Positions 13,101 to 63,260 of a stretch of 64,000 bases of DNA are shown in pieces. Position numbers and translations under genes: made by a program. The stretch's first letter is position 1. Every line of letters starts with the position of its first letter. The stretch is from the NCBI GenBank assembly GCA_014138725.1, contig JACJID010000006.1, positions 618,001 through 682,000 on the forward strand, in the 5' to 3' direction. A model generated the notes under the pieces. It had not been told where the DNA came from. It did no database searches and worked only from the letters and a program-made list of their open reading frames with translations. Origin of the DNA: Kutzneria viridogrisea (GTDB taxonomy: Bacteria > Actinomycetota > Actinomycetes > Mycobacteriales > Pseudonocardiaceae).

Positions 13101-13408
13101 GGGGCGGGGAGACCGCCACCGCCAGCGGCAAGGTCCGCGCGGAACTGTCCGCACTGGAACCGGACAAGCGGCCGAGGGCGATGGTGGCCTACCTCGGTGA
13201 GCAGATCCGGATCATCCTCGGGCTCGGCTCGGCCGCGGTGGAACCCGACGTGCCGCTGACCAACCTCGGCTTCGACTCGCTGACCGCGCTGCAACTGCGC
13301 AACCAGCTGGAGGCCGACCTGGCCATCAAGATCCCGGCCACGGCGGTGTGGACGCACCCCACCCCGGCCGCGCTGGGCGCACACCTGTTGGACCAACTGG
13401 GCATGTGA
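7124..13408 (+). CDS. Single-module, fully reducing type I polyketide synthase (KS-AT-DH-ER-KR-ACP), Mas-like
   Basis: Multienzyme of 2094 aa that should build a saturated, possibly methyl-branched acyl chain. KS (22-447): Cys194 in DTACSSS, His329, His366 in KSNVGH. AT (about 545-850): Ser638 in GHSMGE, specificity tetrad IAAH 739-742, closer to methylmalonyl-type YASH than malonyl HAFH. DH (about 905-1190): His944 and Asp1115. ER (about 1400-1700): nucleotide loop HSGTGGVGLAA near 1550. KR (about 1745-1925): ITGGLGGLGLE, LDD (B-type), Tyr1897. ACP: Ser2052 in GFDSL. Length and domain order match mycobacterial Mas/Pks iterative synthases (about 2100 aa). There is no thioesterase and no docking domain, fitting an iterative enzyme released by the next gene. 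The usual HGTGT of the KS reads HGAGT. The TTG start is 9 bases from GAAGGAG; GTG 7127 is an alternative. Confidence 0.92.
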   Translation: MVPRMSQPTDVRADVPARAVTGDPIAIVGMACRYPGGVEDPAAFWRLLVQGRDVIREGPQGRWDFEAFFDPDIDVPGRCTSRWAGYFDDITGFDAAFFGISPREATTMDPQHRLLIELAWEALERAGMPPRGLAGSRTGVFVGLCHAEYIGRLAGRYEDIDAYMMTGNGHSTAVGRISYLLGLTGPSVAVDTACSSSLVAMHLACQSLRLGESDLALASGVNLMINPETPISYSKWGMLSPTGRCHPFSAGADGFVRGEGAGTVVLKRLDDAVRDGDQVLALVRGTGVNQDGRSQGLTAPSADAQRALFRETVRRAGVRPGQFGLVETHGAGTPIGDPIEFDSLSTVYGTGEGRCALGGVKSNVGHTEAAAGISGVIKSVLSIGHGVVPPTLNFTGWNSQIDPEPTRFFVPTEPTPWPVPGTRLAAVSSFGVGGTNAHVLLEQAPRLPERPSAPETGAPRMIPISAASTEVLGTAASQLADWLHQDGEDVSLGDLAHTLAVRRSHHLARLAVSASSVPELIAGLEAFAEGEPQPNITCTTARAAASRGAVWVFSGQGSQWSGMGRELLASEPVFAEVIAGIEPLVAAEAGFSVTEVMSAPQMSEEIDKIQPTLFAMQVALAELWRANGVEPAAVIGHSMGETAAAVVAGGLSLADGVLVICRRSRLMKRASGLGTMASVDLSPEDAVAELAKAGARGVTAAVLSSPRSTVISGDTAEVERIVELWQDQGLMARRVAVDIAAHSTHMDPLLAEIVSGLAELRPSPCAVPVYSTVLADPRQRFSFDPEYWAANLRQPVRFTHAVRAAAEDGFGVFVEVSPHPVTTYPMSETLSDLVDGAVVLPTMKRDNPPREFLSQQLGALYCAGAPIDWQRAYGVGRLVDAPTLTWDRKRHWIDLPMPHPDMNTSSAANTHPLLGVHVKLPEGEGRHVWQGDLGTAVLPWLADHRVDEAIVLPGAGFTEMVLAAGSEHFRVPAHRLSLSGLVFHRLLPLDEHTEVSTVLSVLGPERVAVSVLTSTDDGVNWVTHATGEVVVVEQSAQPAPAHMGELLAAHSEVEELEGFYAGLRADGYFHGPCFAGLTELRVQDIEGGTVLGRIKVPGKARSAASAFRFHPVLFDSCLQALGAARIKGRAAGAPRLLPAGVGALRVYADPARGVWCEGHAVLDESDGSSAIGRIRLLDADGAVLLEAEDIRLLSPQRETGPRRLDPLLHEVAWQPEPLTGQEVHNGQWLLVGEGDGFAAELAASLGPGCRVLDLPLGGTISLALDQDLTGVVVLPGSRDELDDGLARVLRVADVVRSVATSGHSPRVWIVTERGQAVSPEEDPRLSQSALRGIGRVAGYEHAELGITLVDVDSRAALARELLSGRTEDEVAWRGEERLVARLVKTPLHDGTWQHRPRRTVHYGLDGFALDMARPGNLDSMGLVVRPRVLPGPGEVEIQVQAAALNFRDVLVAMGLYPTEDGTLPPLGGDCAGVVTRTGPGVSHLQTGDWVFTLANGAFATFVTTKADLVAPIPAGMRFAEAAVVPAVYLTAWYGLVHLARLAPGERVLIHSGTGGVGLAAIAIARSRGAEVLATAGSEEKREYLRRMGIEHVMDSRSLDFAEQTMRATGGHGVDVVLNSLVGPALRAGLDVLAIGGRFIELGKRDIYSDSKLGMSPFRRNITISSVDLDLVLRTKTELAATLMSEVAEELSAGRLDALPRQEFPIEQAADAFRAMAAAKHIGKLVLTVPEFGVTEAVVPEGLVPVAHADGAYVITGGLGGLGLEMARWLAGQGAGRLVLNGRSAPSAQTEEVIAGIQAAGTQVEVVRGDVTDPVVAQRLVRAASEGGCRVRGVLHSAAVLDDGILVNLDAERVAKVWRPKVDGAWRLHEATEGQQLDWFVMFSSAASMFGNPGQSNYAAANAWLDAFAAWRRHRGLPALTVNWGAWGQAGRATDFAERGFTTLDTQDGIDALHTLLDHERVRTGVFAFEGDTWFSALPSVMESSFFAAMPRTGGGETATASGKVRAELSALEPDKRPRAMVAYLGEQIRIILGLGSAAVEPDVPLTNLGFDSLTALQLRNQLEADLAIKIPATAVWTHPTPAALGAHLLDQLGM

Positions 13409-24007: not shown

Positions 24008-24020
24008 CCTGCCAGCCGCC

Positions 24021-24785
24021 GAGTCCCGCTCACGGTGGCGCGAGTCCCGCTCTGGGGTGCGTGAGTCCCGTCCACGGTGGCGTGAGTCCCGTTCTGGTGT
24101 TGGCGAGTCCCGTCCAGCGGTGCGTGAGTCCCGTTCTGGTGTCGGCGAGTCCCCCTCGCGGGGGCGCGAGTCCCGCTCTGGGGTGTGTGAGTCCCGCCCG
24201 GTGGTGCGCGAGTCCCGCTGTGGCGCTCGTGAGTCCCGTCCAGCGGTGCGCGAGTCCCGCTCTGGGGTTGGCGAGTCCCGCTCAGGGGGGCGTCAGTCCC
24301 GCTCAGCGGTGCGTGAGTCCCGTCCACAGGGGCGTGAGTCCCGTCCAGTGGTGCGTGAGTCCCGATCTGGTGTTGGCGAGGCCCGCCCGGTGGTGCGCGA
24401 GTCCCGTTGTCGTGCTCGTGAGTCCCGTCTAGCGGTGCGTGAGTCTCATTCTGGTGCTGGTGAGGCCCGCCCGGCGGTGCGCGAGTCCCGTTGTCGTGCT
24501 CGTGAGTCCCGTCTAGCGGTGCGTGAGTCTCATTCTGGTGCTGGTGAGGCCCGCCCGGCGGTGCGCGAGTCCCGTTCTGGTGTCGGCGAGTCCCGCTCCC
24601 GTGCTGGCGAGTCCTGTCCGCTCCTCATGGCCGCTGGGTGTGTGCGCCGTCCTCGTTGCCGACCGCGCGGCCTCGTGCGGTGATCTTCCGCCGCCAGAAC
24701 GGGACTCGTGCCCCTGCGGGCGGGACTCGCCGACCGCAGAGCGGGACTCGGCGTCGGGTGAGCGGGACTCGGGGTTGGGTGCGGG
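24021..24785. repeat. Long 21-bp periodic tandem array, 29 forward plus 4 inverted units (copy 2)
   Basis: GAGTCCCG-type units occur every 21 bp without a slip from 24021 to 24609 (29 units, a few with CAGTCCCG, GAGGCCCG or GAGTCTCA), then after a 92-bp gap GGGACTC occurs at 24701, 24722, 24743 and 24764 (4 units, inverted). Between conserved cores the remaining bases vary among a few types (TCTGGGGTG, TCCAGCGGTG, TTCTGGTGTTGG). Since 21 is a multiple of 3, false open frames encoding a heptapeptide repeat (RESRSGV-like) run through it. It occupies nearly the whole gap between the TetR stop and the metallophore-like operon. Confidence 0.95.
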
Positions 24786-24826
24786 TTTGTGCATGTGAGC
24801 AGGGTCCTACCTTCGTAGGGTGAATT

Positions 24827-24841
24827 TGAAAACCGTTGTCG
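24827..24841 (+). promoter_or_regulatory. Candidate Zur/Fur-type operator upstream of the metallophore-like operon
   Basis: TGAAAACCGTTGTCG is an imperfect 15-bp palindrome that matches the actinobacterial Zur-type consensus TGAAAACGATTTTCA at 11 of 15 positions by my alignment. It lies 44 bases upstream of the first gene, a position suited to block transcription. A small hairpin, CCTAC-CTTC-GTAGG (24806-24819), sits just upstream. The regulator itself is not in the window. Confidence 0.5.
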
Positions 24842-24884
24842 TTATCGTTGGGGCGCTTCGTCTGATCCAGGTGGGGAGTCCAGA

Positions 24885-26066
24885 TTGTCTGCATCCGGGG
24901 TGTTGAGCCCTGTCCTCGACGGCGTCCGCGAGGTCGGCCGGGTGTGCGTGCCCTGCGGGGCCGCGCAGCACCGGGTGGTCGGCCAGTGCGCGTGCGGGCG
25001 CGGCATGGTCGAGACTGTGGTCGGCGCGGGCCGCACGGCTCCGGCCGAGTTGACCGCCGACTTCTACGACTGGGCCTGGCCGGTGCTGCCACTGAGCGAC
25101 CGCTCCGTGGTGCACGGGCCGCTGGACCTGCGCACGCCCCTGCTGGACGGCGGGTTCCTGCGCGAACTGGTCGGCGGCCCGCAGGTCTGGCTCAAGGACG
25201 AGACGGCGCTGCCCACCGGCACCACGAAGGACCGCGCGGCGGCCGTGGTGTACCCGTACCTGCTCGACAACGGGGTCACCGGCATCGTCTTGTCCTCCAC
25301 GGGAAACACCTCGACCTCGTTCGCGGCCTTCGCGCGCTACTACCCGCGGATCGAGGTGCACATCTTCGTCGGGCGGGACTTCGCCTACCGGCTGCGCGGG
25401 CTTGGTTCGCCCAACGTCACGGTGCACGTGGTCAACGGCACGTTCGTGCAGGCCGGGATCGCGGGCCAGCAGTACGCCAAGGCGCATGGCCTGCAATGGG
25501 AGGCGGGCTTCTTCAACCCGGCACGCCGGGACGGGCTGAAGACAGCGTTCCTGGAGGCGGCGCTCGAACTCGGCGAGGGGCCTGGCATGTACGTGCAGGC
25601 GATCAGCAGCGCGATGGGTGTGGTGGGCGCGGCCAAGGCGGCGGGTGAACTGCCGCTCTACGGGCTGCCCGCGCGCAGGCCGCGGCTGCTGTGCGTGCAG
25701 CAGAGCAGCTGCGCGCCGATGGTCACGGCCTGGAGTTCCGGCAGGGAGCGCATCGACGCGAGCGACAAGGTCGCCCGCCCGCACGGACTGGCCAAGGCGA
25801 TCCTGCGCGGCGACCCGTCCGGTGCCTACCCGTTGGTGCGCAACCTGGTCCGCGGCTCGGACGGGGACTTCGTGTCGGTGACCGACAGCCAGATCCGGGT
25901 CGCCCGCAGACTGGTGTTCGAGCACACGGGGCGCTCGGTGTGTGAGGCTTCCTCGGTTGCGGTGGCCGGGTACCTCACGTGGGCGCAGGCAAACCGGCCA
26001 GACCCGGAGGCCGCGCCGGTGGTGATCAACCTGACCGGGGGCGACCGCAATGAGATTCGTCGCTGA
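24885..26066 (+). CDS. PLP-dependent threonine-synthase-like enzyme (fold type II)
   Basis: Cytosolic fold-type II PLP enzyme, 393 aa. The PLP Schiff-base lysine is Lys115 in GTTKDRAA, and the phosphate-contact segment is SSTGNTSTSFAAF. The N-terminus has a CxxC...CxC pattern (VCVPCGAAQHRVVGQCACG) that could bind zinc. Threonine-synthase relatives carry out beta- or gamma-replacement and elimination on amino-acid substrates. It heads ten overlapping genes ending with a complete oligopeptide-type importer, so a role in building a secreted amino-acid-based chelator is more likely than threonine synthesis. TTG start, with GGTGGGGAG 6 bases upstream. The stop overlaps the next gene by 17 bp. Confidence 0.8.
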   Translation: MSASGVLSPVLDGVREVGRVCVPCGAAQHRVVGQCACGRGMVETVVGAGRTAPAELTADFYDWAWPVLPLSDRSVVHGPLDLRTPLLDGGFLRELVGGPQVWLKDETALPTGTTKDRAAAVVYPYLLDNGVTGIVLSSTGNTSTSFAAFARYYPRIEVHIFVGRDFAYRLRGLGSPNVTVHVVNGTFVQAGIAGQQYAKAHGLQWEAGFFNPARRDGLKTAFLEAALELGEGPGMYVQAISSAMGVVGAAKAAGELPLYGLPARRPRLLCVQQSSCAPMVTAWSSGRERIDASDKVARPHGLAKAILRGDPSGAYPLVRNLVRGSDGDFVSVTDSQIRVARRLVFEHTGRSVCEASSVAVAGYLTWAQANRPDPEAAPVVINLTGGDRNEIRR

Positions 26067-26733
26067 CCAGGAGGCCCGCCGGGCACTGCCCCCGCACAGG
26101 CTGTTCGACCTGTGCACACAAGCCTTGCGGGACAACACCTTCCGTGAGGTGACGGCGGTGGCCGAGCTCGGGTCGCGCCGGCCGTCGATCAAGGCGGGCT
26201 TTCTCGCGGACGGCACGCACGGCACCCGGGTCCGGCCGCACTCCGAGGGCGCCTACTGGACCCTGGTCTTCGACCGCGAGGACCAGTTGCGCGGCTGTGT
26301 GCAGGCGGTCTACCTCAGCTACTTCCGTGCGGCCTCGGTGCTGCTGGACTGGCCGCACCGCGCGGGAGCCCGCTCGCTGCTGGTGTGCGGCACGGGGCGG
26401 CTCGGCAGTGCCTGTGCGCAACTGGCTTGCGTGGTTTTGCAAGGAGTTTCGGTGCACTACTGGTCGCCGAGCGGCCGTCCGCCCGCCGGTGTGCGGGCAC
26501 GCCGCTGGCGGCCCGGTGATCAACTGCCCGATGCGGTGATCACCGCGACCCCGGCCACGACGCCAATCCCGTTGTCCCTCAAGGGAACCGGGTACGTCGG
26601 GGTCGGCGGGGGACTGCGTGAGATCGACACCGGCGAGCTCGCCGGGTCGGTGGTTCGCGTCGCCGGTGGCGGCGGTGGCCTGGACGTGCTGCTGGCCGCC
26701 ACCGTGCTCGACGCAGTGGAGGGAGGATCATGA
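26050..26733 (+). CDS. Ornithine-cyclodeaminase-like (SbnB-like) dehydrogenase, short form
   Basis: NAD(P)-binding protein of the ornithine cyclodeaminase/mu-crystallin family, 227 aa, clearly shorter than the usual 320-350. The N-terminal substrate part contains RRPSIKAGFLADGTHGTRVRPHSEGAYW, and the Rossmann domain starts at SLLVCGTGRLGSACAQL; the C-terminal part is curtailed. In staphyloferrin B synthesis the relative SbnB oxidatively releases L-2,3-diaminopropionate from the product of SbnA; an SbnA-like gene lies two genes on, so a similar step is inferred. It overlaps both neighbours (17 bp upstream, ATGA downstream), which implies coupled translation. Confidence 0.72.
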   Translation: MRFVADQEARRALPPHRLFDLCTQALRDNTFREVTAVAELGSRRPSIKAGFLADGTHGTRVRPHSEGAYWTLVFDREDQLRGCVQAVYLSYFRAASVLLDWPHRAGARSLLVCGTGRLGSACAQLACVVLQGVSVHYWSPSGRPPAGVRARRWRPGDQLPDAVITATPATTPIPLSLKGTGYVGVGGGLREIDTGELAGSVVRVAGGGGGLDVLLAATVLDAVEGGS

Positions 26734-27350
26734 CCGCGATCGCCGAAGACCGTGGCACCTGGGTGGACTCGGTGCTGTCCCTGGTCGGCGACACACCCTG
26801 CGTCCGCGTGCGGCTGGAGGGCCGTGAGCTGGCGCTGAAGCTGGAGGGCTTCAACCCCACCGGCACCCTGTTCGACCGGGTGGCCGCGCACGGGCGGATC
26901 ACCAGCCCGCGCCCGCACGTGTGCGACGGGGGACCGCTCGCCGCCTCGCTGGCCCTGCTCGCGGGTACGATGCGCATTCCCCTGACCTACCACGAGTCAC
27001 GGCCAACCGTGTTCGGCGCGATGGCCTCCGCGCTCGGCGCCGAACCCGGTGAAGCCGTTGCCAGCGGCGGGTTCGAGCTCGACCTGCCAGCCGTGCACGC
27101 GGAGTTGCGCGAGGAGGTCGCCGAGGAGCTGGGGGAGCAGGTCCGGGTGCTCGTGCCCGCGCTGCCCGGTTTGGAGCCCGACGTGCTCCCGGCCGATCTG
27201 GAGATGCGAACCCTGTTGGGCAGCAGGGGGATTCTCGTGGACGCACGCAGTGCCGCCGTGGTCCGGCAGGCGCTCTCCTTGCCCGGCAACGAACTCATCG
27301 CCGTGGTGTGCCTCGCCGACGGCGCACTGGACCAGGACGGACTGCTGTGA
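26730..27350 (+). CDS. Truncated cysteine-synthase-fold pseudoenzyme lacking the PLP lysine
   Basis: Protein of 206 aa that begins like a cysteine synthase: VGDTPCVRVRLEGRELALKLEGFNPTGTLFDRVA. In active enzymes the last motif is GSVKDR; here Phe48 replaces the lysine that binds PLP. The SSGN phosphate loop is also absent (CDGGPLAASLALLAG at that place) and the protein stops well short of the 300-350 residues of active members. The adjacent SbnA-like gene has the matching LKLEGFNASGSVK with its lysine, so this is probably a diverged duplicate kept as a partner or scaffold of that enzyme. Coding bias is intact and it overlaps both neighbours (ATGA, GTGA), so it is a maintained gene rather than debris. 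Confidence 0.75.
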   Translation: MTAIAEDRGTWVDSVLSLVGDTPCVRVRLEGRELALKLEGFNPTGTLFDRVAAHGRITSPRPHVCDGGPLAASLALLAGTMRIPLTYHESRPTVFGAMASALGAEPGEAVASGGFELDLPAVHAELREEVAEELGEQVRVLVPALPGLEPDVLPADLEMRTLLGSRGILVDARSAAVVRQALSLPGNELIAVVCLADGALDQDGLL

Positions 27351-28375
27351 CCGCACCGCTCGACCTCATCGGCGGGACCCCGCTGCTCGCCCCGTCCAAC
27401 CTGCGCATCGCGGGCGGCGCCGACCTGCTGCTCAAGCTGGAGGGCTTCAACGCCAGCGGAAGCGTGAAGGCGCGACCCGCGCTGAACATGATCCGGGCGG
27501 CGCAGGCCCGCGGGGACCTGCCACCGGGACGCCCCGTGGTGGAACCCAGCAGTGGCAACCTCGGCCTCGCGCTGGCGATGGTGTGCGGCTGGCTGGGCAT
27601 CGAGTGCCACCTGGTGGTGGACCCGAGGATGACCGCCTACAGCAGGCACGTCATGCAGATGTACGGGGCCACCGTGCACCAGGTGGACCAGCCCGACGAG
27701 AAGGGCAGCTGGCAGGGCAGCAGGCTGGCCCGCGCCCTGCAGGTCGTCGAGGAGCTCGGCGCGCTGTTGTTGTTGCAGTACAGCAATCCGGACAACGCGG
27801 CGGCACACGAGTCGTTGACCGCCAACGAGATCATCGGCCAGCTCGGCGGGCGGGTGCCCGAGGTGTGCGTGGTCGGGGTCAGCACGGGCGGGCAGATCTC
27901 CGGCCTGGGCCGGGCCTTCCGGGCCGCGGGCCTGCCGACCGAGATGGTCGCCGTGGACGTGCAGGGCTCCAGCATCTTCGGCGGGGACTACCAGGCGTAC
28001 CGGCTGCGCGGGCTCGGCCTGTCCTGGTGGCCCGGCAACCTCGACGGCGAGGTGCTCACCCGCGCCTACCGCGTGCCCGAGCGGCTGGCGTTCACCACGG
28101 CGCGCGTGCTCGCCCGCCGGGAGCAGATCGTGTCGGGCGGCGCCGCCGGGGCGGTGCTGTCGGTCGCCCTGCGCGAGGCTTCCCTGCTGGGGCCGGAGAA
28201 CCTGGTGCTGGCCATCGTCGCCGAGCGCGGGGATCGCTACCTGGGCCAGTTCTACCAGTCCGCCTGGCGCATCGAACACGACTTGGACGAAGACCTGAAC
28301 GAAGCCCCCTGGCTGGCGAAGTGCCTGGACCTGCGGCCACTGGACGGGCAGTGGCGCGCGAAGCAGCCGTCATGA
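27347..28375 (+). CDS. SbnA-like PLP-dependent cysteine synthase-family enzyme
   Basis: Fold-type II PLP enzyme, 342 aa. Lys41 in SGSVKARP is the Schiff-base lysine; VEPSSGNLGLALAMVCGWLG is the phosphate loop, and VVDPRMTAYSRHVMQMYGA follows as in SbnA. GVSTGGQISGLGRAF is the second glycine-rich contact. SbnA-type enzymes condense O-phosphoserine with glutamate as the first step to L-2,3-diaminopropionate; a homologue could join another amino acid such as aspartate to give an EDDS-like chelator. The substrate is inference. The GTG start overlaps the previous stop (GTGA), and the ATGA at the end couples it to the MFS gene. Confidence 0.82.
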   Translation: MTAPLDLIGGTPLLAPSNLRIAGGADLLLKLEGFNASGSVKARPALNMIRAAQARGDLPPGRPVVEPSSGNLGLALAMVCGWLGIECHLVVDPRMTAYSRHVMQMYGATVHQVDQPDEKGSWQGSRLARALQVVEELGALLLLQYSNPDNAAAHESLTANEIIGQLGGRVPEVCVVGVSTGGQISGLGRAFRAAGLPTEMVAVDVQGSSIFGGDYQAYRLRGLGLSWWPGNLDGEVLTRAYRVPERLAFTTARVLARREQIVSGGAAGAVLSVALREASLLGPENLVLAIVAERGDRYLGQFYQSAWRIEHDLDEDLNEAPWLAKCLDLRPLDGQWRAKQPS

Positions 28376-29616
28376 CGGCGACCAGGTTCTGGACCACCCC
28401 GGTCGCGCTGGTCCTGCTGGTCGCGCGGTCCACCTCGGTGGCCGGTGACTGGCTGTTCCAGATGGCGCTGGTCTGGCTGGTGCTGGAGCTGACCGGCTCC
28501 AGCCAAGCCGTGTCGCTGACCGGCATCGCCGAGGCGATTCCCGTTGTGCTGGTGGGACTGCTCGGTGGGCACTGGCTGGACCGGGGTGGGCGGCTGCGGC
28601 TGCTGGCCTGGCTGGACCTGCTGCGCGCGGTGCTGGTCGCGCTGCCGGTCCTGCTGTACTCCTTGGGGCAACTCAGCTTCTGGCACCTCGTGGTGCTCAG
28701 CGTGCTGATGACCGCGGCGAACCTGCTGTTCACCCCGGGCATGCAGAGCACCCTGCCCGCGCTGGTGCCCAAGGAACACCTGACCCGGGCGCACGGCCTG
28801 ATCGACGTGACCGAGCGGGTCGGCCGCATCAGCGGGCCGGGGCTGGCCGGTGTGCTGTCCGCACTCATGCCGGTGGCCGGGTTCTTCCTGGTCGACTCGG
28901 CGACCTTCGTGATCAGCGCTGGGGCGTTCCTGCTGCTGAGTCTCTGGGCGCGGCGCGCGGGCACCGATGCCAAGGTCGAGCGCAAGGGGCCGCAGCCCAG
29001 CCGGGTGCAGCAGTTGGCCGCCGGGTTCGCGTTCGTCCGCGAGCAGGCGGTGATCGGCCGGATCATCCTGGTGCGTTCGCTGAACAACTTCGCCTGGGCG
29101 GCCTACCTGGTGGCGACCCCGTTGCTGGTCGCGCACTCCTACGGCCAGGCCGTCGGCGCGTGGGGCCTGCTTGTCGCCGCCTACGCGGTGGGCCAGCTGA
29201 TCGGTGGCATGTGCGCCTCGCGGGTCAGTTCGTTCAAGGTGCCGCCGCTCGTGCTGCTGTCCGGCGGCTGGCTGTTCACCGCGTTCGGCTTCGTCGTGCT
29301 GGGCCTGTCCGGCACGGTGTGGGTGGGCTGCCTGGGCCTGCTGCTGGGCGGGCTCGGCGGGCCGCTGGCGCACGTCAGCACCGACGGGTACCTGGCCGCC
29401 AACACCCCGACCGAGTTGCAGGGCCGGGTTTTCTCCTTGCAGTACATGACTTTGAAGCTGGTCCAGATGCTGGGCCTGGCACTGGCCGGTGTGCTGTGCG
29501 CGTACCTGGCCGCGGGCAGCGTGCTCGTCCTGGCCGGTGCGCTGATGACCCTCGTCTCGGTGACCTCGTTGCTGTTCCCGATCCGCCGTTCCACCAAGGA
29601 AGAAGTGCTCACGTGA
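28372..29616 (+). CDS. MFS exporter (EntS/CntE-like)
   Basis: Inner-membrane transporter of 414 aa with twelve predicted helices, of the MFS_3 group that contains the enterobactin exporter EntS. It starts FWTTPVALVLLVARSTSVAGDWLFQMALVWLVLEL; the loop GGHWLDRGGRLRLLAWLDLLRA matches the conserved MFS loop 2-3; TERVGRISGPGLAG and LAANTPTELQGRVFSLQ are typical of this group. Placed between four biosynthetic genes and a five-gene importer, it is best read as the exporter of the finished chelator, the role CntE plays for staphylopine. Overlaps at both ends (ATGA, GTGA). Confidence 0.85.
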   Translation: MTATRFWTTPVALVLLVARSTSVAGDWLFQMALVWLVLELTGSSQAVSLTGIAEAIPVVLVGLLGGHWLDRGGRLRLLAWLDLLRAVLVALPVLLYSLGQLSFWHLVVLSVLMTAANLLFTPGMQSTLPALVPKEHLTRAHGLIDVTERVGRISGPGLAGVLSALMPVAGFFLVDSATFVISAGAFLLLSLWARRAGTDAKVERKGPQPSRVQQLAAGFAFVREQAVIGRIILVRSLNNFAWAAYLVATPLLVAHSYGQAVGAWGLLVAAYAVGQLIGGMCASRVSSFKVPPLVLLSGGWLFTAFGFVVLGLSGTVWVGCLGLLLGGLGGPLAHVSTDGYLAANTPTELQGRVFSLQYMTLKLVQMLGLALAGVLCAYLAAGSVLVLAGALMTLVSVTSLLFPIRRSTKEEVLT

Positions 29617-31178
29617 GATTGTTCAGGACCGCAGCAGTGCTGCTCGCCGGGGCTGTCGCCGCCACGGCCTGCGGCACGGCTCCCGCTGCCGCCCGCGACT
29701 CGGTGGTGATCGCGGTCAACCCCGAGCCCACCACCCTCAACCCCGTTCTCGGCTTCGCCCCGTACGGCGCGTCCAAGCTGTTCGACGGCCTGGTCGCGCT
29801 GGACGACAAGCTGAACCTGGTGCCCGCTCTGGCCGAGTCGCTGCCGAAGGCCAGTGAGGACAACAAGACCTTCACCTACACCCTGCGCCAGGGCGTGACC
29901 TTCAGCGACGGCACGCCGCTGACCGCCGAGGACGTGGCCTTCACCTACCAGTCGGTGCTCGACCCCAAGACGAACACCACGATGCGCACCGACTTCGCCG
30001 CCGTCGAGTCGGTGCGGACCCCGGACCCGCGCACGGTGGTGTTCCAGCTCAAGTACCCCTACGCCACGTTCCCGCAGTACACCGGGCTGGGCATCGTTCC
30101 GGCACACCTGTTGCGCGGCAAGGACATCAACACCGACGGCTTCAACCGCAAGCCGGTGGGCACCGGTCCGTACAAGCTGGACTCCTGGCAGGCCGGGGAG
30201 CGCATGGTGCTGACCGCCAACGAGAAGTACTGGGGCGGTGCGCCGAAGGTCAAGAAGGTGACCCTGGCGTTCGTGCGCGACGACAACGTGCGGGCCACCC
30301 GGCTGGCCACCGGTGAACTGGACGCGGCGGCCATGCCCCCGCGGCTGGTGGACCGGTTCCGCAACCAGCCGGGCATGAGCGTGCGCTCGGTGCCCAGCGC
30401 CGACTACCGGGGCATCATGATGCCGATGGGCAACCCGGTCACCTCGGACAACGCCCTGCGCCGGGCACTGGACCTGGTCATCGACCGGGACGCCATGGTC
30501 AAGGGCATCCTCGGCGGTGCGGGCAAACCCGCGTTCGGGCCGCTGTTCGCCGAGAGCAAGTGGTACGAGAAGAGCATCGAGCATCCGGTCGACCTGCCTG
30601 CCGCGGAGCGGATCCTGGACGAGGCGGGCTGGGTGAAGGGCCCCGACGGGATGCGCAGGCGCGGGGACACGCCCGCCAGGTTCACCGTCATGTACAACGC
30701 GGCCGACACCGTGCGCAAGGACATCGCCCTGGCCTTCTCTTCCGACGCGAAGAAAGTCGGGGTGGACGTGGCCGTGGACGGGCTGAGCGTCGAGGCGTTG
30801 CAGAAGCGCATGGACAAGGACGCTCTGGTGATGGGCTGGGGAACGCCGTACGACCCGGACTTCATCACCTACAAGATCTTCCACTCCTCCTTCGCGGGCA
30901 AGGGCTGGTACAACCCGGGCCGGTACCACAACCCGACCGTGGACAAGCTGCTCGACGAGGGCCGCACCACCCCTGACGAGGCCACCCGCGTGGGTATCTA
31001 CAAGTCGTTCCAGAAGGAGCAGGCGGCCGACCCGGCGTGGCTGTTCTGCGTGCAGCTGGACCACGTGTACGTCATGGCCGACGCGTGGAACGGCTTGCAG
31101 CAGCAGGTGGAGCCGCACAACGACGGTCTGGCGCACGGGCCGTGGTGGAACGTCGAGAAGTGGGTGCCCAAGCAGTGA
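29613..31178 (+). CDS. Extracytoplasmic substrate-binding lipoprotein (Opp/CntA-like, SBP family 5)
   Basis: Lipoprotein of 521 aa. The signal ends in the lipobox VAATAC with the lipidated Cys near residue 20. SBP_bac_5 features follow: VVIAVNPEPTTLNPVLGF, the KTFTYTLRQGVTFSDGTPLTAEDVAFTYQS block, FNRKPVGTGPYKLDSW and MGWGTPYDPDFITYKIFHS. This family binds oligopeptides, nickel, heme or opine-metal complexes; with the linked chelator enzymes and exporter, the likely ligand is the metal-loaded product. GTG start overlapping the exporter stop. Confidence 0.87.
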   Translation: MRLFRTAAVLLAGAVAATACGTAPAAARDSVVIAVNPEPTTLNPVLGFAPYGASKLFDGLVALDDKLNLVPALAESLPKASEDNKTFTYTLRQGVTFSDGTPLTAEDVAFTYQSVLDPKTNTTMRTDFAAVESVRTPDPRTVVFQLKYPYATFPQYTGLGIVPAHLLRGKDINTDGFNRKPVGTGPYKLDSWQAGERMVLTANEKYWGGAPKVKKVTLAFVRDDNVRATRLATGELDAAAMPPRLVDRFRNQPGMSVRSVPSADYRGIMMPMGNPVTSDNALRRALDLVIDRDAMVKGILGGAGKPAFGPLFAESKWYEKSIEHPVDLPAAERILDEAGWVKGPDGMRRRGDTPARFTVMYNAADTVRKDIALAFSSDAKKVGVDVAVDGLSVEALQKRMDKDALVMGWGTPYDPDFITYKIFHSSFAGKGWYNPGRYHNPTVDKLLDEGRTTPDEATRVGIYKSFQKEQAADPAWLFCVQLDHVYVMADAWNGLQQQVEPHNDGLAHGPWWNVEKWVPKQ

Positions 31179-32158
31179 CGACCCGAGCACGGTACCTGCG
31201 CGGGCTCGTCCTGCGCAGGACCGCTGTGTCCGTGCCGATCCTGCTGGTGGTCACGCTGGCCATGTTCGCGCTTGGCGCGGCCTCGCCCTTCGACCCGGCC
31301 GCGCGCTACCTCGGCGACTCCGTGGGCAACGCGACGACCGAGGACCTGGAGCGCATCCGGCACAACATCGGCGCCGACCAGCCGTTCTACGTGCAGTGGT
31401 GGAACTGGCTCACGCACGCCGTGACCGGTGATCTCGGCGATTCGCTGAGCCAGCACCAGCCCGTGCTGGCCGTGATCTCCGAGCGGCTGGGCTGGACGCT
31501 GCTGCTGGTCACGGTGGCCTTCGTGGTCACCATGGCGCTGTCCCTGGTGACCGGTGCGCTCGCGGCGATCCGGCACGGCGGCTGGTTCGACCGTGCGGTC
31601 ACCACCCTGGCCTACGCCTTCGAGGCGGTTCCGGTGTTCTGGCTGTCCCTGGCCATGATCTGGCTGTTCTCGTTGACCCTGCGGTGGTTCCCGGCCGGTG
31701 GCGTGAGCGATGTGCGGACCGGGGCGTTGAGCTTCGGCGGGGTGCTGAGCCATCTGGTGATGCCCGCCGTGGCCCTGGCGGTGTCCCAGGTGCCCTGGTT
31801 CGTGTTGTACGTCAAGCAGTCCGTGCGCACGGCGATGGCGGAGGACTACGTAGTCGGGGCGCGGGCGCGTGGGCTGCGGGAGCGCACGGTGCTCGTCGGG
31901 CATGTCGTGCGGGGCGCCCTGTTGCCGTTCATCACACTCGTCGGTTCGAGGTTCCCCGAGTTGATCACCGGCGCGGTACTGGTGGAGACCACGTTCTCCT
32001 GGCCCGGTGTGGCCGCGGCGACCACGGAAGCGGGTGTGGCGCTGGACTTCCCGCTGCTGGCGGCGCTCACCACGTTGGCGACCGCAGTGGTGTTGCTGGG
32101 CAACCTGCTCGCCGACGTGGTGTACGCCTTCGCCGACCCGAGGGTGGTGACCGGGTGA
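31175..32158 (+). CDS. Opp/Cnt-type ABC importer permease 1
   Basis: Membrane permease of 327 aa (DppB/CntB type). It has an N-terminal helix (RRTAVSVPILLVVTLAMFALG), a large periplasmic loop, then about five helices. The cytoplasmic EAA-type loop is visible at YVVGARARGLRERTVLVGHVVRGALLPFI, which docks on the ATPases; FPELITGAVLVETTFSWPG is a standard DppB-family motif. It forms the channel with the next gene. GTGA overlaps at start and end imply fixed stoichiometry. Confidence 0.9.
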   Translation: MTTRARYLRGLVLRRTAVSVPILLVVTLAMFALGAASPFDPAARYLGDSVGNATTEDLERIRHNIGADQPFYVQWWNWLTHAVTGDLGDSLSQHQPVLAVISERLGWTLLLVTVAFVVTMALSLVTGALAAIRHGGWFDRAVTTLAYAFEAVPVFWLSLAMIWLFSLTLRWFPAGGVSDVRTGALSFGGVLSHLVMPAVALAVSQVPWFVLYVKQSVRTAMAEDYVVGARARGLRERTVLVGHVVRGALLPFITLVGSRFPELITGAVLVETTFSWPGVAAATTEAGVALDFPLLAALTTLATAVVLLGNLLADVVYAFADPRVVTG

Positions 32159-32970
32159 AGTTCTGGACCAGCGTCTCAATTGTTGTGGTGGCGGTGCTGG
32201 CGGCTCTGGTCGTGCCCGCGCTGGCCGACCTGGACCAGCGGCTGGTGGACCTGGACCTGGTGTTGCAACCGCCGTCCTGGCAGCACCTGTTCGGCACCGA
32301 CGCCCTCGGCCGGGACGTGTTGCTGCGCTGCGTGTACGGCATGCGGGTCTCGCTGCTGGTGGGGTTGGCGGCCGGGGTCTGCTCAAGCCTGATCGGCACG
32401 GCGGCGGGTGCGCTGGCCGGTACCTGGGGCGGGCGGGTGGACCAGTTGGTGTGCCGGGTCATCGACGGCACCTCGGCGGTTCCCCAGCTGTTGCTGGGCA
32501 TCCTGCTGGTGGCCCTGTTCCGGCCGAGCGTGACGGCCGTGGTCGTCGCGGTGGCGCTGACCCACTGGATGGTCACCGCGCGCATCGTGCGCGTGGAGGT
32601 GATGTCCTTGCGCGCCAGGCCGTTCGTGGACGCCGCGATCAGCGGGGGAGCGAGCCGGTCATGGGTGCTGGCCAGGCACTTCCTGCCCAACGTGTTCCCG
32701 CATGCGGCGCTGGCCACCACGCTGATGGTGCCGCACGCGATCTGGCACGAGTCGGCGCTGTCCTTCCTGGGCCTCGGCCTGCCGCCACACCTGGCCAGCC
32801 TCGGCACGATGATGGACGACGGGCGGCGCGCGCTGTTCTCCGGGGCGTGGTGGGTCTCGCTGGCGCCCGGGCTGTTCATCCTCATCCCCACGTTGGCGGT
32901 GTCCGGACTGGCGGGCGTGCTGCGGGACCGCGTGGAACACCGACGGAGGTCTGCGGAGTTGGCATGGTGA
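32155..32970 (+). CDS. Opp/Cnt-type ABC importer permease 2
   Basis: Membrane permease of 271 aa (DppC/CntC type). The DppC hallmark HLFGTDALGRDVLLRCVYGMRVSLLVG lies near the N-terminus; the EAA loop is FVDAAISGGASRSWVLARHFLPNVFPH, and SALSFLGLGLPPHLASLGTMM follows, a strongly conserved family block. It pairs with the preceding permease. The GTG start overlaps that gene's stop, and the next ATPase starts 7 bases inside this gene. Confidence 0.9.
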   Translation: MKFWTSVSIVVVAVLAALVVPALADLDQRLVDLDLVLQPPSWQHLFGTDALGRDVLLRCVYGMRVSLLVGLAAGVCSSLIGTAAGALAGTWGGRVDQLVCRVIDGTSAVPQLLLGILLVALFRPSVTAVVVAVALTHWMVTARIVRVEVMSLRARPFVDAAISGGASRSWVLARHFLPNVFPHAALATTLMVPHAIWHESALSFLGLGLPPHLASLGTMMDDGRRALFSGAWWVSLAPGLFILIPTLAVSGLAGVLRDRVEHRRRSAELAW

Positions 32971-33893
32971 AGTCCTCGTTGCGGGTGCGCGGCATGTCCG
33001 TGCGCTTCAAGGTCCCGAACGGCTCGGTCGCGGCTGCCAGCGACGTGTCCCTTGACCTGGGCGAGGGTGAGGTCCTCGCACTGGTGGGCGAGAGCGGTTG
33101 CGGCAAGTCCGTGGTGGCCTCGGGCCTGCTGGGGCTGCTGCCGGGCAACGCGCGGGTCAGCGGTGCGGCGGTGCTGCGCGGCCCGGAGGGTGAGGTGGAA
33201 CTGCTCGGGGCCAGCCAGCAGGAACTGTCCACAAAGGTCAGAGGGCGCAGGATCGGCCTGGTGCCGCAAAGTGCGGCCACCCACCTGCACCCCGTGCGGA
33301 CGATCCGCGCCCAACTCGCCGAGACGATCAGCGAACTCGGTGCGGAGCTGGACGTGGCGCGGGCCGCCGCGCGGGCGCACTTCCCGGCGGACCACCTGGA
33401 CCGGTACCCGCACCAGCTCTCCGGCGGCCTGGCCCAGCGTGCGGCGATCGCGTTGGCGCTGGCCGGATCGGCCTGGCTGGTGCTGGCCGACGAGCCGACC
33501 ACGGGGCTGGACCGGGCGCTGGTGCACGAGATCGTCGACGAGTTCCGCCGGATCGCCGACCAGGGGCACGCCGTGCTCATGGTGACTCACGACCTGGCCG
33601 CGGCCGAGCGGGTGGCCGACCGCGTGGCGGTGATGTACGCGGGCCGCATCGTGGAGGACTCGCCCGCCAAGGCGTTCTACGGCGGACCGGCCCACCCGTA
33701 CGCCCGCGGCCTGCTCAACGCGTTGCCGGAGCGCGAGTTCCGGCCGATTCCCGGAGTGCCACCACAGCTGAGCGAGCTGCCCGCGGGCTGCGCGTTCCAG
33801 CCCAGGTGCGTGCTCGCCACCGACCTGTGCACCCAGTTGCCCGAACCTACCGGGGAGGACCACATCGTGGCCTGCCACCACGCCCATGCTTGA
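32964..33893 (+). CDS. Opp/Cnt-type ABC importer ATPase 1 (DppD/CntD-like)
   Basis: Cytoplasmic ATPase, 309 aa. Walker A is VGESGCGKSVV, the Q-loop segment GLVPQSAATHLHPVRTI, signature LSGGLAQRA, Walker B LVLADEPTTGLD, switch VTHDL. The C-terminal oligopeptide-transporter extension (HPYARGLLNALPER and the Cys-containing CAFQPRC...CTQLPEP) is present; in DppD relatives such cysteines bind an Fe-S cluster or structural metal. Three of the four usual Cys are evident, the fourth probably in VACHH. Confidence 0.9.
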   Translation: MVKSSLRVRGMSVRFKVPNGSVAAASDVSLDLGEGEVLALVGESGCGKSVVASGLLGLLPGNARVSGAAVLRGPEGEVELLGASQQELSTKVRGRRIGLVPQSAATHLHPVRTIRAQLAETISELGAELDVARAAARAHFPADHLDRYPHQLSGGLAQRAAIALALAGSAWLVLADEPTTGLDRALVHEIVDEFRRIADQGHAVLMVTHDLAAAERVADRVAVMYAGRIVEDSPAKAFYGGPAHPYARGLLNALPEREFRPIPGVPPQLSELPAGCAFQPRCVLATDLCTQLPEPTGEDHIVACHHAHA

Positions 33894-34557
33894 GGCACGG
33901 GGCGTTGTCGCCGGATACCAGCGCAGTTCGCCGGTCGTGCGCGGGGTGGACCTCGCGCTGGAGCCGGGCCGCGCGCTCGGCCTGCTCGGCCCCAGCGGCT
34001 GCGGGAAGTCCACGCTGGCCAGGGTCATGTCCCTGCTGCACAGCCCGTACCAGGGCAGCGTGACCGTGGACGGCAAGCTCGCCAACGGTTTCCGGTTCCG
34101 CGCCCCGCGTGGCCTGCGCACGCGCATCGGCGTGGCCTTCCAGCAGCCCCGGCTCGCCGTGGACCCGAGGCTGCGGCTGATCGACGTCATCGCGGAGCCG
34201 TTGCGCGCCACGGGCCAGTCCGCGCTGGTCGAGCGGCGCGTGCCGGAACTGGTGGAGCGCACCGGGTTGACCGAGGACCTGCTGCGCAGGCGCCCGCACC
34301 AGGTCAGCGACGGCCAGTTGCAGCGCGCCTGCCTCGGGCGCATGCTCGTGCTGCGCCCGGCATACCTGATCTGCGACGAGGTCACCGCGATGCTCGACGC
34401 GTCCACGGCGGCCTTCCTGGTGGGCGCGATCGAGGAGTACCGGCAGGACACCGGCGCGGCTGTGCTGGCCATCAGCCACGACCCGGTCCTGTTGGGCCGG
34501 TGGTGCGAGCAGGTGCTCGACTTCCCCGGGCTCAACGCCCGTGCCGACACGGGCTGA
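33886..34557 (+). CDS. Opp/Cnt-type ABC importer ATPase 2 (DppF/CntF-like, short)
   Basis: Second ATPase of the importer, 223 aa, without the C-terminal oligopeptide extension. Walker A is LGPSGCGKSTLA, the Q-loop is GVAFQQPRLAVDP, signature VSDGQLQRA (Asp in place of the usual first Gly, as in CntF/DppF-like proteins), Walker B ICDEVTAMLD, switch ISHDP. It overlaps its partner by 8 bases and closes the ten-gene operon; the next gene starts 182 bases later. Confidence 0.88.
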   Translation: MLEARGVVAGYQRSSPVVRGVDLALEPGRALGLLGPSGCGKSTLARVMSLLHSPYQGSVTVDGKLANGFRFRAPRGLRTRIGVAFQQPRLAVDPRLRLIDVIAEPLRATGQSALVERRVPELVERTGLTEDLLRRRPHQVSDGQLQRACLGRMLVLRPAYLICDEVTAMLDASTAAFLVGAIEEYRQDTGAAVLAISHDPVLLGRWCEQVLDFPGLNARADTG

Positions 34558-34739
34558 GGGGCTTACGCCGAACGGGTAGTTCTGTGCTGGACCGTGCGGT
34601 CGAGCGGCGATGTGGTGCAGGTGGAGCGTCTGATGGCAGACTTTTCGTGACCGAATGTGCCCAGGCGTGACAGACAAGTGACGTCGGCATGGCATGGTTG
34701 TGCCGTCAGCCACGAACACCACACGTCGTGAGGTGACCA

Positions 34740-35567
34740 GTGCCCACAGTGATCGCGTACGGCGCCGACTACTCGGCGGGTGAGTTCTCGCCCGCCCAGT
34801 TGGACGCCTACACGGCCGGTGGCGGATGGGATCTGCGAGTCCTGTTGCGCTACATCGGCTATCCCCAGCAACCCAAGTGCATCAGCCACTATCCCGGTGC
34901 CTACCAGCAGCACGTCGCCGCGGGGCGCACCGTGGTGCTGCTGCACGAGTGGGACGTCGACGACACCGCCGGTGGTTGGGACGCCGGGGTGGCCCAGGCC
35001 CGGCTCGCGCTCAACGACGCCAACTCGATCGGTTACCCGGCGGACATGCCGATCTTCATGTGCGCCGACGACTGGCTGTCCAAGCACGGGATCGCGGTGA
35101 GCACCGCCATGTCCTACCTCGACGGCGCGGCCAGCGTGCTCGGCTGGAACCGCACGGGTGCCTACGGGTTCTCCGACTTCGTCCACCCCGCACAGGACGG
35201 CGGCCACGCGAGGTGGTTCTGGCTGTGCGGTGACGAGGCCAACGTGCGCGACGGGATCCACCTCTACCAGTGCAACTACAGCCAGTTCAGTCATGACGGC
35301 GTGGGCTGCGACCTGAACAAGGTCTATGTGGACCCCGCCTCGTTCAGCGAAGGAGATTTCCTGATGGCACTGGAGCCGTGGAAGCAGGAGCGCATCTTCG
35401 ACCGCATCCTCAGCATGAGCCAGGGCGTCGACGGGCAGGACTTCGACGGGGCGCAGTTCGCCCGCGAGGAGAGCGAGCGCAGGGCGCTGGCCGATGCGGT
35501 CGCCAAGCTCAGCCAACAGGTGCAGGCGCTCAGCGACAAGATCGACGCGATGCAGCAGAACAAGTGA
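34740..35567 (+). CDS. Rv2525c-like glycoside-hydrolase-like (DUF1906) protein with C-terminal coiled coil
   Basis: Protein of 275 aa. The first about 215 residues have the DUF1906 TIM-barrel pattern: IAYGADYSAGEFSPAQLDAY, LLRYIGYPQQPKCISHYP, TVVLLHEWDVDDTAGG, and IFMCADDW, followed by YQCNYSQF and the metal/acid-bearing GCDLNKVYVDPASF. Mycobacterial Rv2525c, a related TAT-exported protein, affects cell-wall peptidoglycan sensitivity. No signal peptide is visible here, so it may act inside or be exported by another route. The C-terminal 45 residues (FAREESERRALADAVAKLSQQVQALSDKI region) form a coiled coil, likely for oligomerisation. GTG start after GAGGTGA. Confidence 0.75.
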   Translation: MPTVIAYGADYSAGEFSPAQLDAYTAGGGWDLRVLLRYIGYPQQPKCISHYPGAYQQHVAAGRTVVLLHEWDVDDTAGGWDAGVAQARLALNDANSIGYPADMPIFMCADDWLSKHGIAVSTAMSYLDGAASVLGWNRTGAYGFSDFVHPAQDGGHARWFWLCGDEANVRDGIHLYQCNYSQFSHDGVGCDLNKVYVDPASFSEGDFLMALEPWKQERIFDRILSMSQGVDGQDFDGAQFAREESERRALADAVAKLSQQVQALSDKIDAMQQNK

Positions 35568-41915: not shown

Positions 41916-42140
41916 GAAGCACCTCGTTCGGTGAGGCTTCTGTGCGGACACAGGCCACTGACCCCCCAACGTCGAGAGACGTTCCGGGTCAGGACAGGTC
42001 TCCCCGGCCTAAGGGGTAACCCCAAGTGGCTTCCCGGCAACGGGATACGCCGTGCAGTGCCAAAGCTCTGACGAGAGGGGTGTGCGGCCGGTTGCTCGAC
42101 CGGTGCGCGCTCCCCGTCGTGCGACACGACGAAGGGAGGT
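41916..42140 (+). ncRNA. Highly structured mRNA leader, candidate cis-regulatory RNA, upstream of the PLP-pseudoenzyme/speD operon
   Basis: About 225 nt with consecutive hairpins: 41916-41940 (GAAG/CTTC plus CCTC/GAGG), 41941-41952 (TGTG/CACA), 41958-41992 (7-bp CTGACCC/GGGTCAG, internal loop, 6-bp AACGTC/GACGTT capped by a GAGA tetraloop), 42033-42044 (CCCG-GCAA-CGGG, GNRA loop, extended by GGC/GCC), 42077-42115 (GGGG/CCCC outer, CCGGT/ACCGG inner), and 42115-42131 (7-bp CGTCGTG/CACGACG, 3-base loop). The last hairpin ends 2 bases before the Shine-Dalgarno of a 21-aa ORF. Two GNRA loops and a chain of stable stems are unlikely by chance. I do not recognise a known riboswitch class. Confidence 0.6.
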
Positions 42141-62945: not shown

Positions 62946-62984
62946 CGGGTGCCGGCCTCCAACACCTCGTGGGGGTCTTCGCGT

Positions 62985-63142
62985 GCCGTGGCCGGTCTCC
63001 TGGCTGACGGGTACTTCGACCACGGCTTGCCTTCCCAGGTGCTGCCACCCAGTGACCCCGGTTCGCGCCGGGTACGCCGTGGACTCCCGATCACAGTGGC
63101 GAGGGCCGCTCCGGTACCGCACCGGATTCCCGTCACCACGGC
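62985..63142 (-). ncRNA. Cobalamin (AdoCbl-type) riboswitch
   Basis: On the minus strand: P1 GCCGTGG (63142-63136) pairs with CCACGGC (62991-62985); GGGAATCCGGTGCGG, GCCACTGTGATCGGGAGTC and the B12 box GTCAGCCAGGAGACCGGCC (about 63008-62991) are the classical conserved elements. It lies 40 bases upstream of the permease ATG. Between them CCCCCA and TGGAGG can pair (5 of 6), covering the Shine-Dalgarno, so control is probably at translation: bound cobalamin frees or hides this site. High intracellular cobalamin should turn off the operon. Confidence 0.95.
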
Positions 63143-63260
63143 CTGGTCACGGTAAGGAGCCGTCGGCCGCGCTGTCAACGTGACCTGGTTGGGGGACGCG
63201 TGAGTTGACAGGCGGGCGTGCGGTCGGGAGCATTCGCGCAGGCGAGTCGGGGAGTGAGCG

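What the first reader, a model, noticed from the sequence alone, without database searches (positions are those of the whole stretch)
24827..34557. Ten-gene operon for a probable small amino-acid-derived metallophore with its own exporter and importer
Seen: ten genes with nearly all stop/start codons overlapping: a threonine-synthase-like PLP enzyme, an ornithine-cyclodeaminase-like protein, a PLP-fold pseudoenzyme, an SbnA-like enzyme, an MFS exporter of the EntS/CntE kind, then a complete Opp-type importer. Known: SbnA and SbnB make L-2,3-diaminopropionate; staphylopine loci pair an MFS exporter (CntE) with an Opp importer (CntABCDF); Amycolatopsis japonicum makes [S,S]-EDDS from a zinc-repressed aes cluster with SbnA/SbnB-like enzymes (recalled, not checked). 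Inferred: this locus makes an EDDS-like or Dap-based zincophore and recovers the loaded form. No NRPS, NIS synthetase or nicotianamine synthase is present, so the product would be small.
Basis: partly seen in the sequence, partly recalled or inferred. Interest (0 to 1): 0.88.

Follow-up and report, generated by a model that had tools for sequence, protein, structure and literature searches.

The report
Zinc-controlled operon for a small chelator
A soil-type bacterium carries a ten-gene operon, apparently switched on by zinc starvation, that looks built to make, secrete and re-import a very small zinc-grabbing molecule without the usual assembly enzymes.

Summary
The operon is real: ten + strand genes (24885-34557), nine of nine junctions overlapping. 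At 24827-24846 lies TGAAAACCGTTGTCGTTATC, resembling this genome's own sites before znuA, two CobW GTPases and a ribosomal-protein operon with cysteine-free L33. On a matrix built without it, it scores 33.8 bits; the next best place in the window scores 11.1 and none in 4 Mb of simulated sequence reaches it. Zur control, hence a zinc role, is well supported, though not measured. The SbnA-like enzyme keeps SbnA's Lys47, Arg132, Tyr152 and Ser185. The OCD-like (227 aa) and PLP-fold (206 aa) proteins are eroded. The first enzyme fails the threonine synthase cut-offs. The importer's solved relatives include nickel binders. No nicotianamine synthase, opine dehydrogenase, NRPS or NIS model was hit by the ten proteins. 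Best explanation: a Zur-repressed zincophore operon making an aminopolycarboxylate by PLP-catalysed C-N bond formation on phosphoserine, perhaps like fungal toxin A/aspergillomarasmine. The EDDS link could not be tested. No second copy was found in the genomes sampled.

The parts
24827..24846 (+). Zur-box-like operator TGAAAACCGTTGTCGTTATC in the operon promoter
   Evidence: 33.8 bits on a matrix of five own-genome sites excluding this one; next in window 11.1; none in 4 Mb simulated
24885..26066 (+). P0001, fold-type-II PLP enzyme of the threonine/cysteate synthase kind; lysine motif TTKDR present
26050..26733 (+). P0002, 227-aa shrunken relative of ornithine cyclodeaminase/SbnB; GTGRLG nucleotide-binding-like motif kept, conserved Lys of the GxK motif apparently not
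   Evidence: no Pfam/NCBIfam/PDB hit (16, 17, 21)
26730..27350 (+). P0003, 206-aa degenerate PALP fold without the PLP lysine
   Evidence: hhalign 94% to the SbnA-like family; best of 20 shuffles 0.37%
27347..28375 (+). P0004, SbnA-like PLP enzyme with Lys47, Arg132, Tyr152 and Ser185 equivalents
28372..29616 (+). P0005, MFS transporter (MFS_1/MFS_3), probable exporter
29613..31178 (+). P0006, substrate-binding protein, family 5, near nickel/metallophore binders
31175..32158 (+). P0007, permease (NikB/Opp type)
32155..32970 (+). P0008, permease (NikC/Opp type)
32967..33893 (+). P0009, ATPase (OppD/NikD type)
33886..34557 (+). P0010, ATPase (NikE/OppF type)
34628..34641 (+). terminator-like hairpin after the operon
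   Evidence: 4 found in the region against 3.1 expected, so weak

Best explanation
A Zur-repressed zincophore operon. When zinc is scarce Zur leaves the box at 24827 and one ten-gene message is made. P0004 (SbnA-like) joins O-phosphoserine to the amine of an amino acid (Asp or Glu most likely), giving a Dap-amino-acid conjugate that is itself a chelator. P0001, a threonine/cysteate-synthase-like PLP enzyme, adds or supplies a second unit. The shrunken SbnB-like P0002 either reduces an imine (opine style) or is a relic, because cleaving the conjugate would destroy the chelator; P0003 is a non-catalytic partner or relic. P0005 exports the chelator; P0006-P0010 bring back the zinc complex. Shown by sequence: gene set, overlaps, operator-like site, active-site residues. 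Inferred: Zur binding, every reaction, the product, the direction of transport and the metal carried.
For: Operator: 33.8 bits against 11.1 for the next place in the window; 0 in 4 Mb simulated. The five training sites precede znuA (two), two CobW-family GTPases and an operon with a cysteine-free L33; the other L33 locus, with cysteines, has none within 3 mismatches. The published computational motif TGaNAANNNTTNtCA fits at 9 of 10 fixed bases (passage). P0004 keeps Lys47, Arg132, Tyr152, Ser185; the last three are called the key residues for selective binding of phosphoserine (passage of PMC12414870). P0001 groups with 8 relatives at 100/100; 5 of the 8 lie beside NRPS/PKS-type or ATP-grasp genes by Pfam. 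Binding protein: solved relatives include the nickel binders YntA and NikA. E. coli NikA binds Ni- and Zn-aspergillomarasmine (passages of PMC11091072). AMA synthase condenses OPS and Asp without giving free Dap (passage of PMC12751119).
Against: No orthologous locus supports the gene set as a unit: P0001 relatives sit in other contexts and P0002 has only four weak partial matches besides itself in 298 genomes. P0004 misses the SbnA cut-off, whereas a gene elsewhere in this genome passes it (394.6 bits). Tyr at position 152 is not peculiar to SbnA: two of five other own-genome PALPs compared have it. With two eroded genes the pathway could be decaying. No metabolite or expression data. The importer's cargo is not fixed by its relatives: the best solved match, 8efz, has no stated ligand, and an oligopeptide binder (AppA, 1e-50) ranks above NikA; [quoted passage not shown] Four of the seven genome places within 2 mismatches of the box are in unrelated spots. 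The site fits the S. coelicolor ChIP motif tGaNNatSatNNtCa less well, 8 of 11. The sigma-70 consensus scan found no promoter in 24500-34900.
Confidence: 0.68

Rival explanations
1. EDDS-like zincophore: the operon is a variant of the Zur-controlled [S,S]-EDDS pathway of Amycolatopsis japonicum.
For: EDDS synthesis is Zur-controlled, its genes were found through Zur motifs, and its structure pointed to a route other than NRPS or NIS (passages). The Zur-like box and an SbnA-like enzyme fit.
Against: No aes sequence could be compared. EDDS has an ethylenediamine core (recalled), and no decarboxylase domain is among the Pfam hits of the ten proteins. The SbnB counterpart is eroded.
Confidence: 0.15
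2. Opine-type zincophore: P0002 still works as a reductase and joins a Dap-like amine from P0004/P0001 to a keto acid, giving a staphylopine-like product without nicotianamine synthase.
For: P0002 keeps GTGRLG and a C-terminal segment alignable to the OCD fold. MFS exporter plus Opp-type importer is a layout of staphylopine-type loci (passages).
Against: P0002 keeps 11 of 25 positions invariant in six OCD/SbnB rows, with 6 gapped. No nicotianamine synthase or opine dehydrogenase model among the hits (the NCBIfam lists of P0004, P0009 and P0010 were cut at the best 25).
Confidence: 0.2
3. Zinc-regulated antimetabolite or signalling amino acid (a Dap derivative) rather than a chelator; the importer takes up peptides or other metal complexes.
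For: 5 of 8 P0001 relatives sit beside NRPS/PKS-type or ATP-grasp genes; family-5 importers are broad, and AppA is among the solved relatives of P0006.
Against: Exporter, importer and Zur-like box in one coupled operon; several metal binders near P0006.
Confidence: 0.12
4. A decaying locus: an ancestral Dap cluster whose SbnB and one PLP gene have eroded, with only the importer still useful.
For: P0002 and P0003 are shortened and lack conserved residues, with the lowest GC3 values of the ten, 0.84 and 0.88.
Against: All frames open, overlaps kept at nine of nine junctions, P0004 active-site residues intact, strong operator-like site.
Confidence: 0.15

Closest known systems
[S,S]-EDDS (aes) zincophore locus, Amycolatopsis japonicum
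   Same: Actinomycete, Zur-controlled, small aminopolycarboxylate, route thought to be neither NRPS nor NIS (passages)
Opine zincophores (staphylopine, bacillopaline; Cnt)
   Same: MFS exporter plus Opp-type importer in the locus (passages)
   Different: No nicotianamine synthase or opine dehydrogenase model hit; P0006 has 121.6 bits against the CntA cut-off of 800
Fungal aspergillomarasmine/toxin A synthase
   Same: Cysteine-synthase-like PLP enzyme joining OPS to an amino acid, the product itself a Zn/Ni/Co chelator (passages)
   Different: Fungal; sequence not compared; here an operon with importer and two PLP enzymes
SbnA/SbnB and CmnB/CmnK (Dap biosynthesis)
   Same: P0004 has SbnA active-site residues; CmnB is among the PDB hits of P0004; the Dap role of CmnB/CmnK is recalled
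   Different: SbnB counterpart eroded; no NIS or NRPS gene in the operon

Membership tests
Zur regulon | Zur-type box in the promoter, like those of znuA, CobW GTPases and cysteine-free ribosomal proteins | tested here: met
   9 of 10 fixed bases of one published motif, 8 of 11 of another
Zur regulon | Zur binding and induction by zinc depletion | not testable with these tools
   needs EMSA and expression data
SbnA (TIGR03945) | score over the curated cut-off 349.95 | tested here: not met
   245 bits; three family relatives 297-306.6, own-genome gene 394.6
SbnA (TIGR03945) | Lys47, Arg132, Tyr152, Ser185 | tested here: met
   among 13 other SbnA-like relatives Arg132 and Ser185 in 13 of 13, Tyr152 in 0 of 13; two of five own-genome PALPs also have Tyr there
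SbnB (TIGR03944) / OCD (PF02423) | model match and conserved Lys of GxK | tested here: not met
   no hit at E 0.001; Lys aligned to His (uncertain alignment); remote relation by hhalign
Opine zincophore (Cnt) | CntL (nicotianamine synthase) and CntM (opine dehydrogenase) | tested here: not met
   no such name among the Pfam and NCBIfam hits listed for the ten proteins; no direct comparison with CntL/CntM sequences
Opine zincophore (Cnt) | exporter plus Opp or FecCD importer in the locus | tested here: met
   layout described in passages
Threonine synthase | score over a curated threonine synthase cut-off | tested here: not met
   P0001 best 110.4 against 303; six threonine synthase models in its hit list, none met
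Cysteate synthase (TIGR03844) | score over cut-off 324.9 | tested here: not met
   104.4 bits
EDDS (aes) pathway | homology to aesA-H | not testable with these tools
   paper searches and passages 41, 45, 68 gave no aes sequence
NikA/metallophore-binding SBP | sequence relation to solved metal-chelate binders | tested here: met
   4oet 6.4e-69 (CjNikZ by recall; the output names it a putative peptide binder), YntA 4ofl 4.1e-59, NikA 1zlq 4.9e-38; best overall 8efz 5.9e-96, ligand not stated; AppA 1xoc 1e-50 lies between
NikA equivalog (TIGR02294) | score over cut-off 393 | tested here: not met
   183.5 bits

The most novel reading that the evidence does not exclude
A bacterial counterpart of the fungal marasmins: a zinc-repressed operon whose chelator is the phosphoserine-derived amino-acid conjugate itself (toxin A or aspergillomarasmine-like), made by two different PLP enzymes with no nicotianamine synthase, opine dehydrogenase, NRPS or NIS, helped by a catalytically dead PLP paralogue and a shrunken SbnB that no longer releases Dap, and recovered by a NikA-like importer.
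Probability: 0.3. Interest if true: 0.78.

Novelty: new variant of a known kind. Interest (0 to 1): 0.62.

Why it matters
The opine zincophore survey of which passages were read used CntM as its handle and so would not see a locus without it. A Zur-boxed, SbnA-type, NRPS-free operon with its own exporter and importer would show another, simpler enzymatic way to a zinc carrier. It gives a testable pathway to aminopolycarboxylate chelators of the EDDS/AMA kind, which matter as biodegradable EDTA substitutes (EDDS) and as metallo-beta-lactamase inhibitors (AMA).

Tried and rejected
Looked for a second copy of the locus. P0004 in genome contigs: 2 loci, both distant, 28% and 37%. P0002 in 298 genomes of the order: own plus four weak partial matches (E 1.4e-4 to 7.6e-4); in 7 of the genus: own only. 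P0001 in 396 phylum, 390 family and 394 class genomes, overlapping draws: 8 relatives in 7 other genomes at 36-40%; two further family matches near 1e-26 were left out of that count. The neighbourhoods of all 8 were fetched; none showed P0002 or P0004 relatives with an importer. The P0003 hits there fell on the P0001 relative itself, the ATPase hits and in L032 fell mostly on exporter-like genes, and L072 has a weak P0005 hit (L032/L033 were compared on picked ORFs only). P0004 in 249 family genomes: 13 others at 38-45%; 7 of these 13 neighbourhoods fetched, none the same. Plasmids: P0001 45 records, all under 60% identity; P0002 none. The genome searches with proteins scored only part of the candidates in most calls, so absence is from samples only.

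Structure prediction of P0002 and P0003 without relatives gave pLDDT 36.5 and 34.2, too poor for a fold search, so none was made. Recent horizontal transfer by composition: not supported, GC3 like the flanks. Housekeeping threonine or cysteine synthase: rejected on cut-offs. The tree holds only three other own-genome PALPs, none verified as the housekeeping threonine synthase, and has long branches, so only the clade of nine is relied on. In one search, of eight own-genome PALP loci only the five with a phmmer match were aligned. Literature searches for this gene combination: 20 papers, all listed; none; 6; 20 of 178 listed; 20 of 140; 20 of 539; 3; no listed title describes it. Of the papers cited only passages were seen.
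Full report
Setting. The window is part of a 10.25 Mb genome in 11 contigs.

Observation. Ten ORFs run from TTG 24885 to 34557 on the + strand, each starting inside the one before (17, 4, 4, 4, 4, 4, 4, 4 and 8 nt). Domain scans give PALP (P0001), nothing (P0002), a partial, sub-threshold PALP (P0003), PALP with SbnA as best NCBIfam model (P0004), MFS (P0005), and SBP_bac_5, two BPD_transp permeases and two ABC ATPases (P0006-P0010). The neighbours scanned are unrelated: an FAD-binding hydroxylase-like protein and GT87 proteins upstream, an Rv2525c-like protein downstream.

The zinc operator. A site that begins 58 bases before the first codon reads TGAAAACCGTTGTCGTTATC. The same kind of site stands before this genome's znuA (two sites), before an operon whose L33 lacks cysteines and the CobW-family GTPase gene divergent from it, and before a second CobW-family GTPase. 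The neighbours of that L33 gene I read as L28, S14 and S18 by eye. A matrix from these five sites, without the operon's own, gives the operon's 20-mer 33.8 bits. The next best place in the window has 11.1; the best of 147,324 strand-positions in 13 other stretches of this genome has 16.2; no place in 4 Mb of third-order simulated sequence, both strands, reaches 33.8 (maximum 21.5). Genome-wide, TGAAAACNGTTTTCA with up to 2 mismatches has 7 places, against 0 for the reversed control. Three are the sites of znuA, a CobW gene and this operon; of the other four, three fall inside predicted genes and one between genes. The locus of the L33 with cysteines has no site within 3 mismatches. One published actinobacterial motif fits at 9 of 10 fixed bases, the S. 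coelicolor ChIP motif at 8 of 11 (passage). Against: the sigma-70 consensus scan of 24500-34900 found no promoter (0 against 0.3 expected). There are five Fur-family matches, two of them with the same score on two contigs and perhaps one gene; which is Zur was not determined.

The enzymes. P0004 is 29.9% identical to SbnA and scores 245 bits on the SbnA model, below the 349.95 cut-off. Three family relatives score 297-306.6. A gene elsewhere in this genome, next to an OCD gene and near an NRPS-type gene, scores 394.6. Aligned to SbnA, P0004 keeps Lys47 (the PLP lysine, by family knowledge), Arg132, Tyr152 and Ser185. Of 13 other relatives 13 keep Arg132 and Ser185 and none keeps Tyr152; two of five other own-genome PALPs aligned have Tyr there. 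Arg132, Tyr152 and Ser185 are called the key residues for selective binding of phosphoserine. P0001 fails the cut-offs of threonine and cysteate synthase. On a tree of 15 rows it groups at 100/100 with 8 relatives from 7 genomes, apart from three own-genome PALPs and two other family proteins. Of these 8, Pfam shows condensation, acyltransferase or ketosynthase proteins near four (L032, L071, L073, L074) and ATP-grasp ligases near one (L072); L087 has a weak AMP-binding match; L085 and L086 were judged by eye from ORFs. Two carry a full SbnB over its cut-off (L073, L074) with no P0004-like gene in the 20 and 19 kb read; one of those two genomes (G818) has an SbnA-like gene elsewhere. This hints that P0001-type enzymes can feed SbnB; it is an inference. 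P0002 is related to OCD by profile (81%; best of 20 shuffles 0.53%) but keeps 11 of 25 positions invariant in six OCD/SbnB rows, 6 being gapped. P0003 is related to the SbnA-like family (94%; best of 20 shuffles 0.37%) and less to the P0001 family (69%), with Phe for the PLP lysine.

Transport. P0005's best model is TIGR00900, then EntS, both under their cut-offs. P0006's solved relatives are 8efz (ligand not stated), 4oet, 3ry3, the nickel binder YntA, the oligopeptide binder AppA and, lower, NikA. E. coli NikA binds aspergillomarasmine complexes of Ni and Zn, Zn-AMA 14-fold more weakly than Ni-histidine.

Reading. Zur control is the firmest functional statement, resting on sequence alone. 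A zincophore follows from operator, exporter, importer and enzymes together. The product is open. I favour a phosphoserine-amino-acid conjugate that is itself the chelator, because the SbnB step looks disabled and because a fungal PLP enzyme is reported to do this. An EDDS-like product is possible but untested; an opine-style product needs P0002 to be active.

Limits. No orthologous locus was found in the genomes sampled, so conservation cannot support the unit. The P0002 alignment is uncertain in its first half. Nothing here was measured in the laboratory.

Noticed in passing
24020-24781: Array of imperfect 21/42-bp repeats (GAGTCCCGC...) between the upstream gene and the operon promoter; function unknown.
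   Followed up: partly
41916-42086 (+): M-box (magnesium) riboswitch, 140 bits.
   Followed up: no
62973-63155 (-): Cobalamin riboswitch, 84 bits.
   Followed up: no
7124-13408 (+): 2094-aa type I polyketide synthase with KS, AT, DH, ER-like, KR and carrier domains.
   Followed up: no
L075 (own genome C1:165001-181000): A second SbnA, over its curated cut-off, beside an OCD gene and near an NRPS-type gene, so this genome has another likely Dap pathway.
   Followed up: partly
L037 (G196): SbnA-like gene with three ATP-grasp ligases, a methyltransferase and an MFS protein, next to an Opp-type importer: a different locus that also pairs SbnA-like chemistry with likely import and export; best Zur-like site 16.8 bits.
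   Followed up: partly
L072 (G754): P0001 relative in a cluster with ATP-grasp ligases, a TPP enzyme, a methylaspartate-mutase-E-like protein and a weakly P0005-like protein; possibly an unusual amino-acid or dipeptide pathway.
   Followed up: partly
L073, L074: P0001 relative plus full SbnB in NRPS/PKS-type clusters with no SbnA-like gene in the stretch read; a threonine-synthase-like enzyme may replace SbnA there.
   Followed up: partly
G000:C5:7517-7789 and G000:C8:472935-473207: Two Fur-family matches with identical score and frame length on two contigs: a duplicate, or one gene in overlapping contig ends.
   Followed up: no
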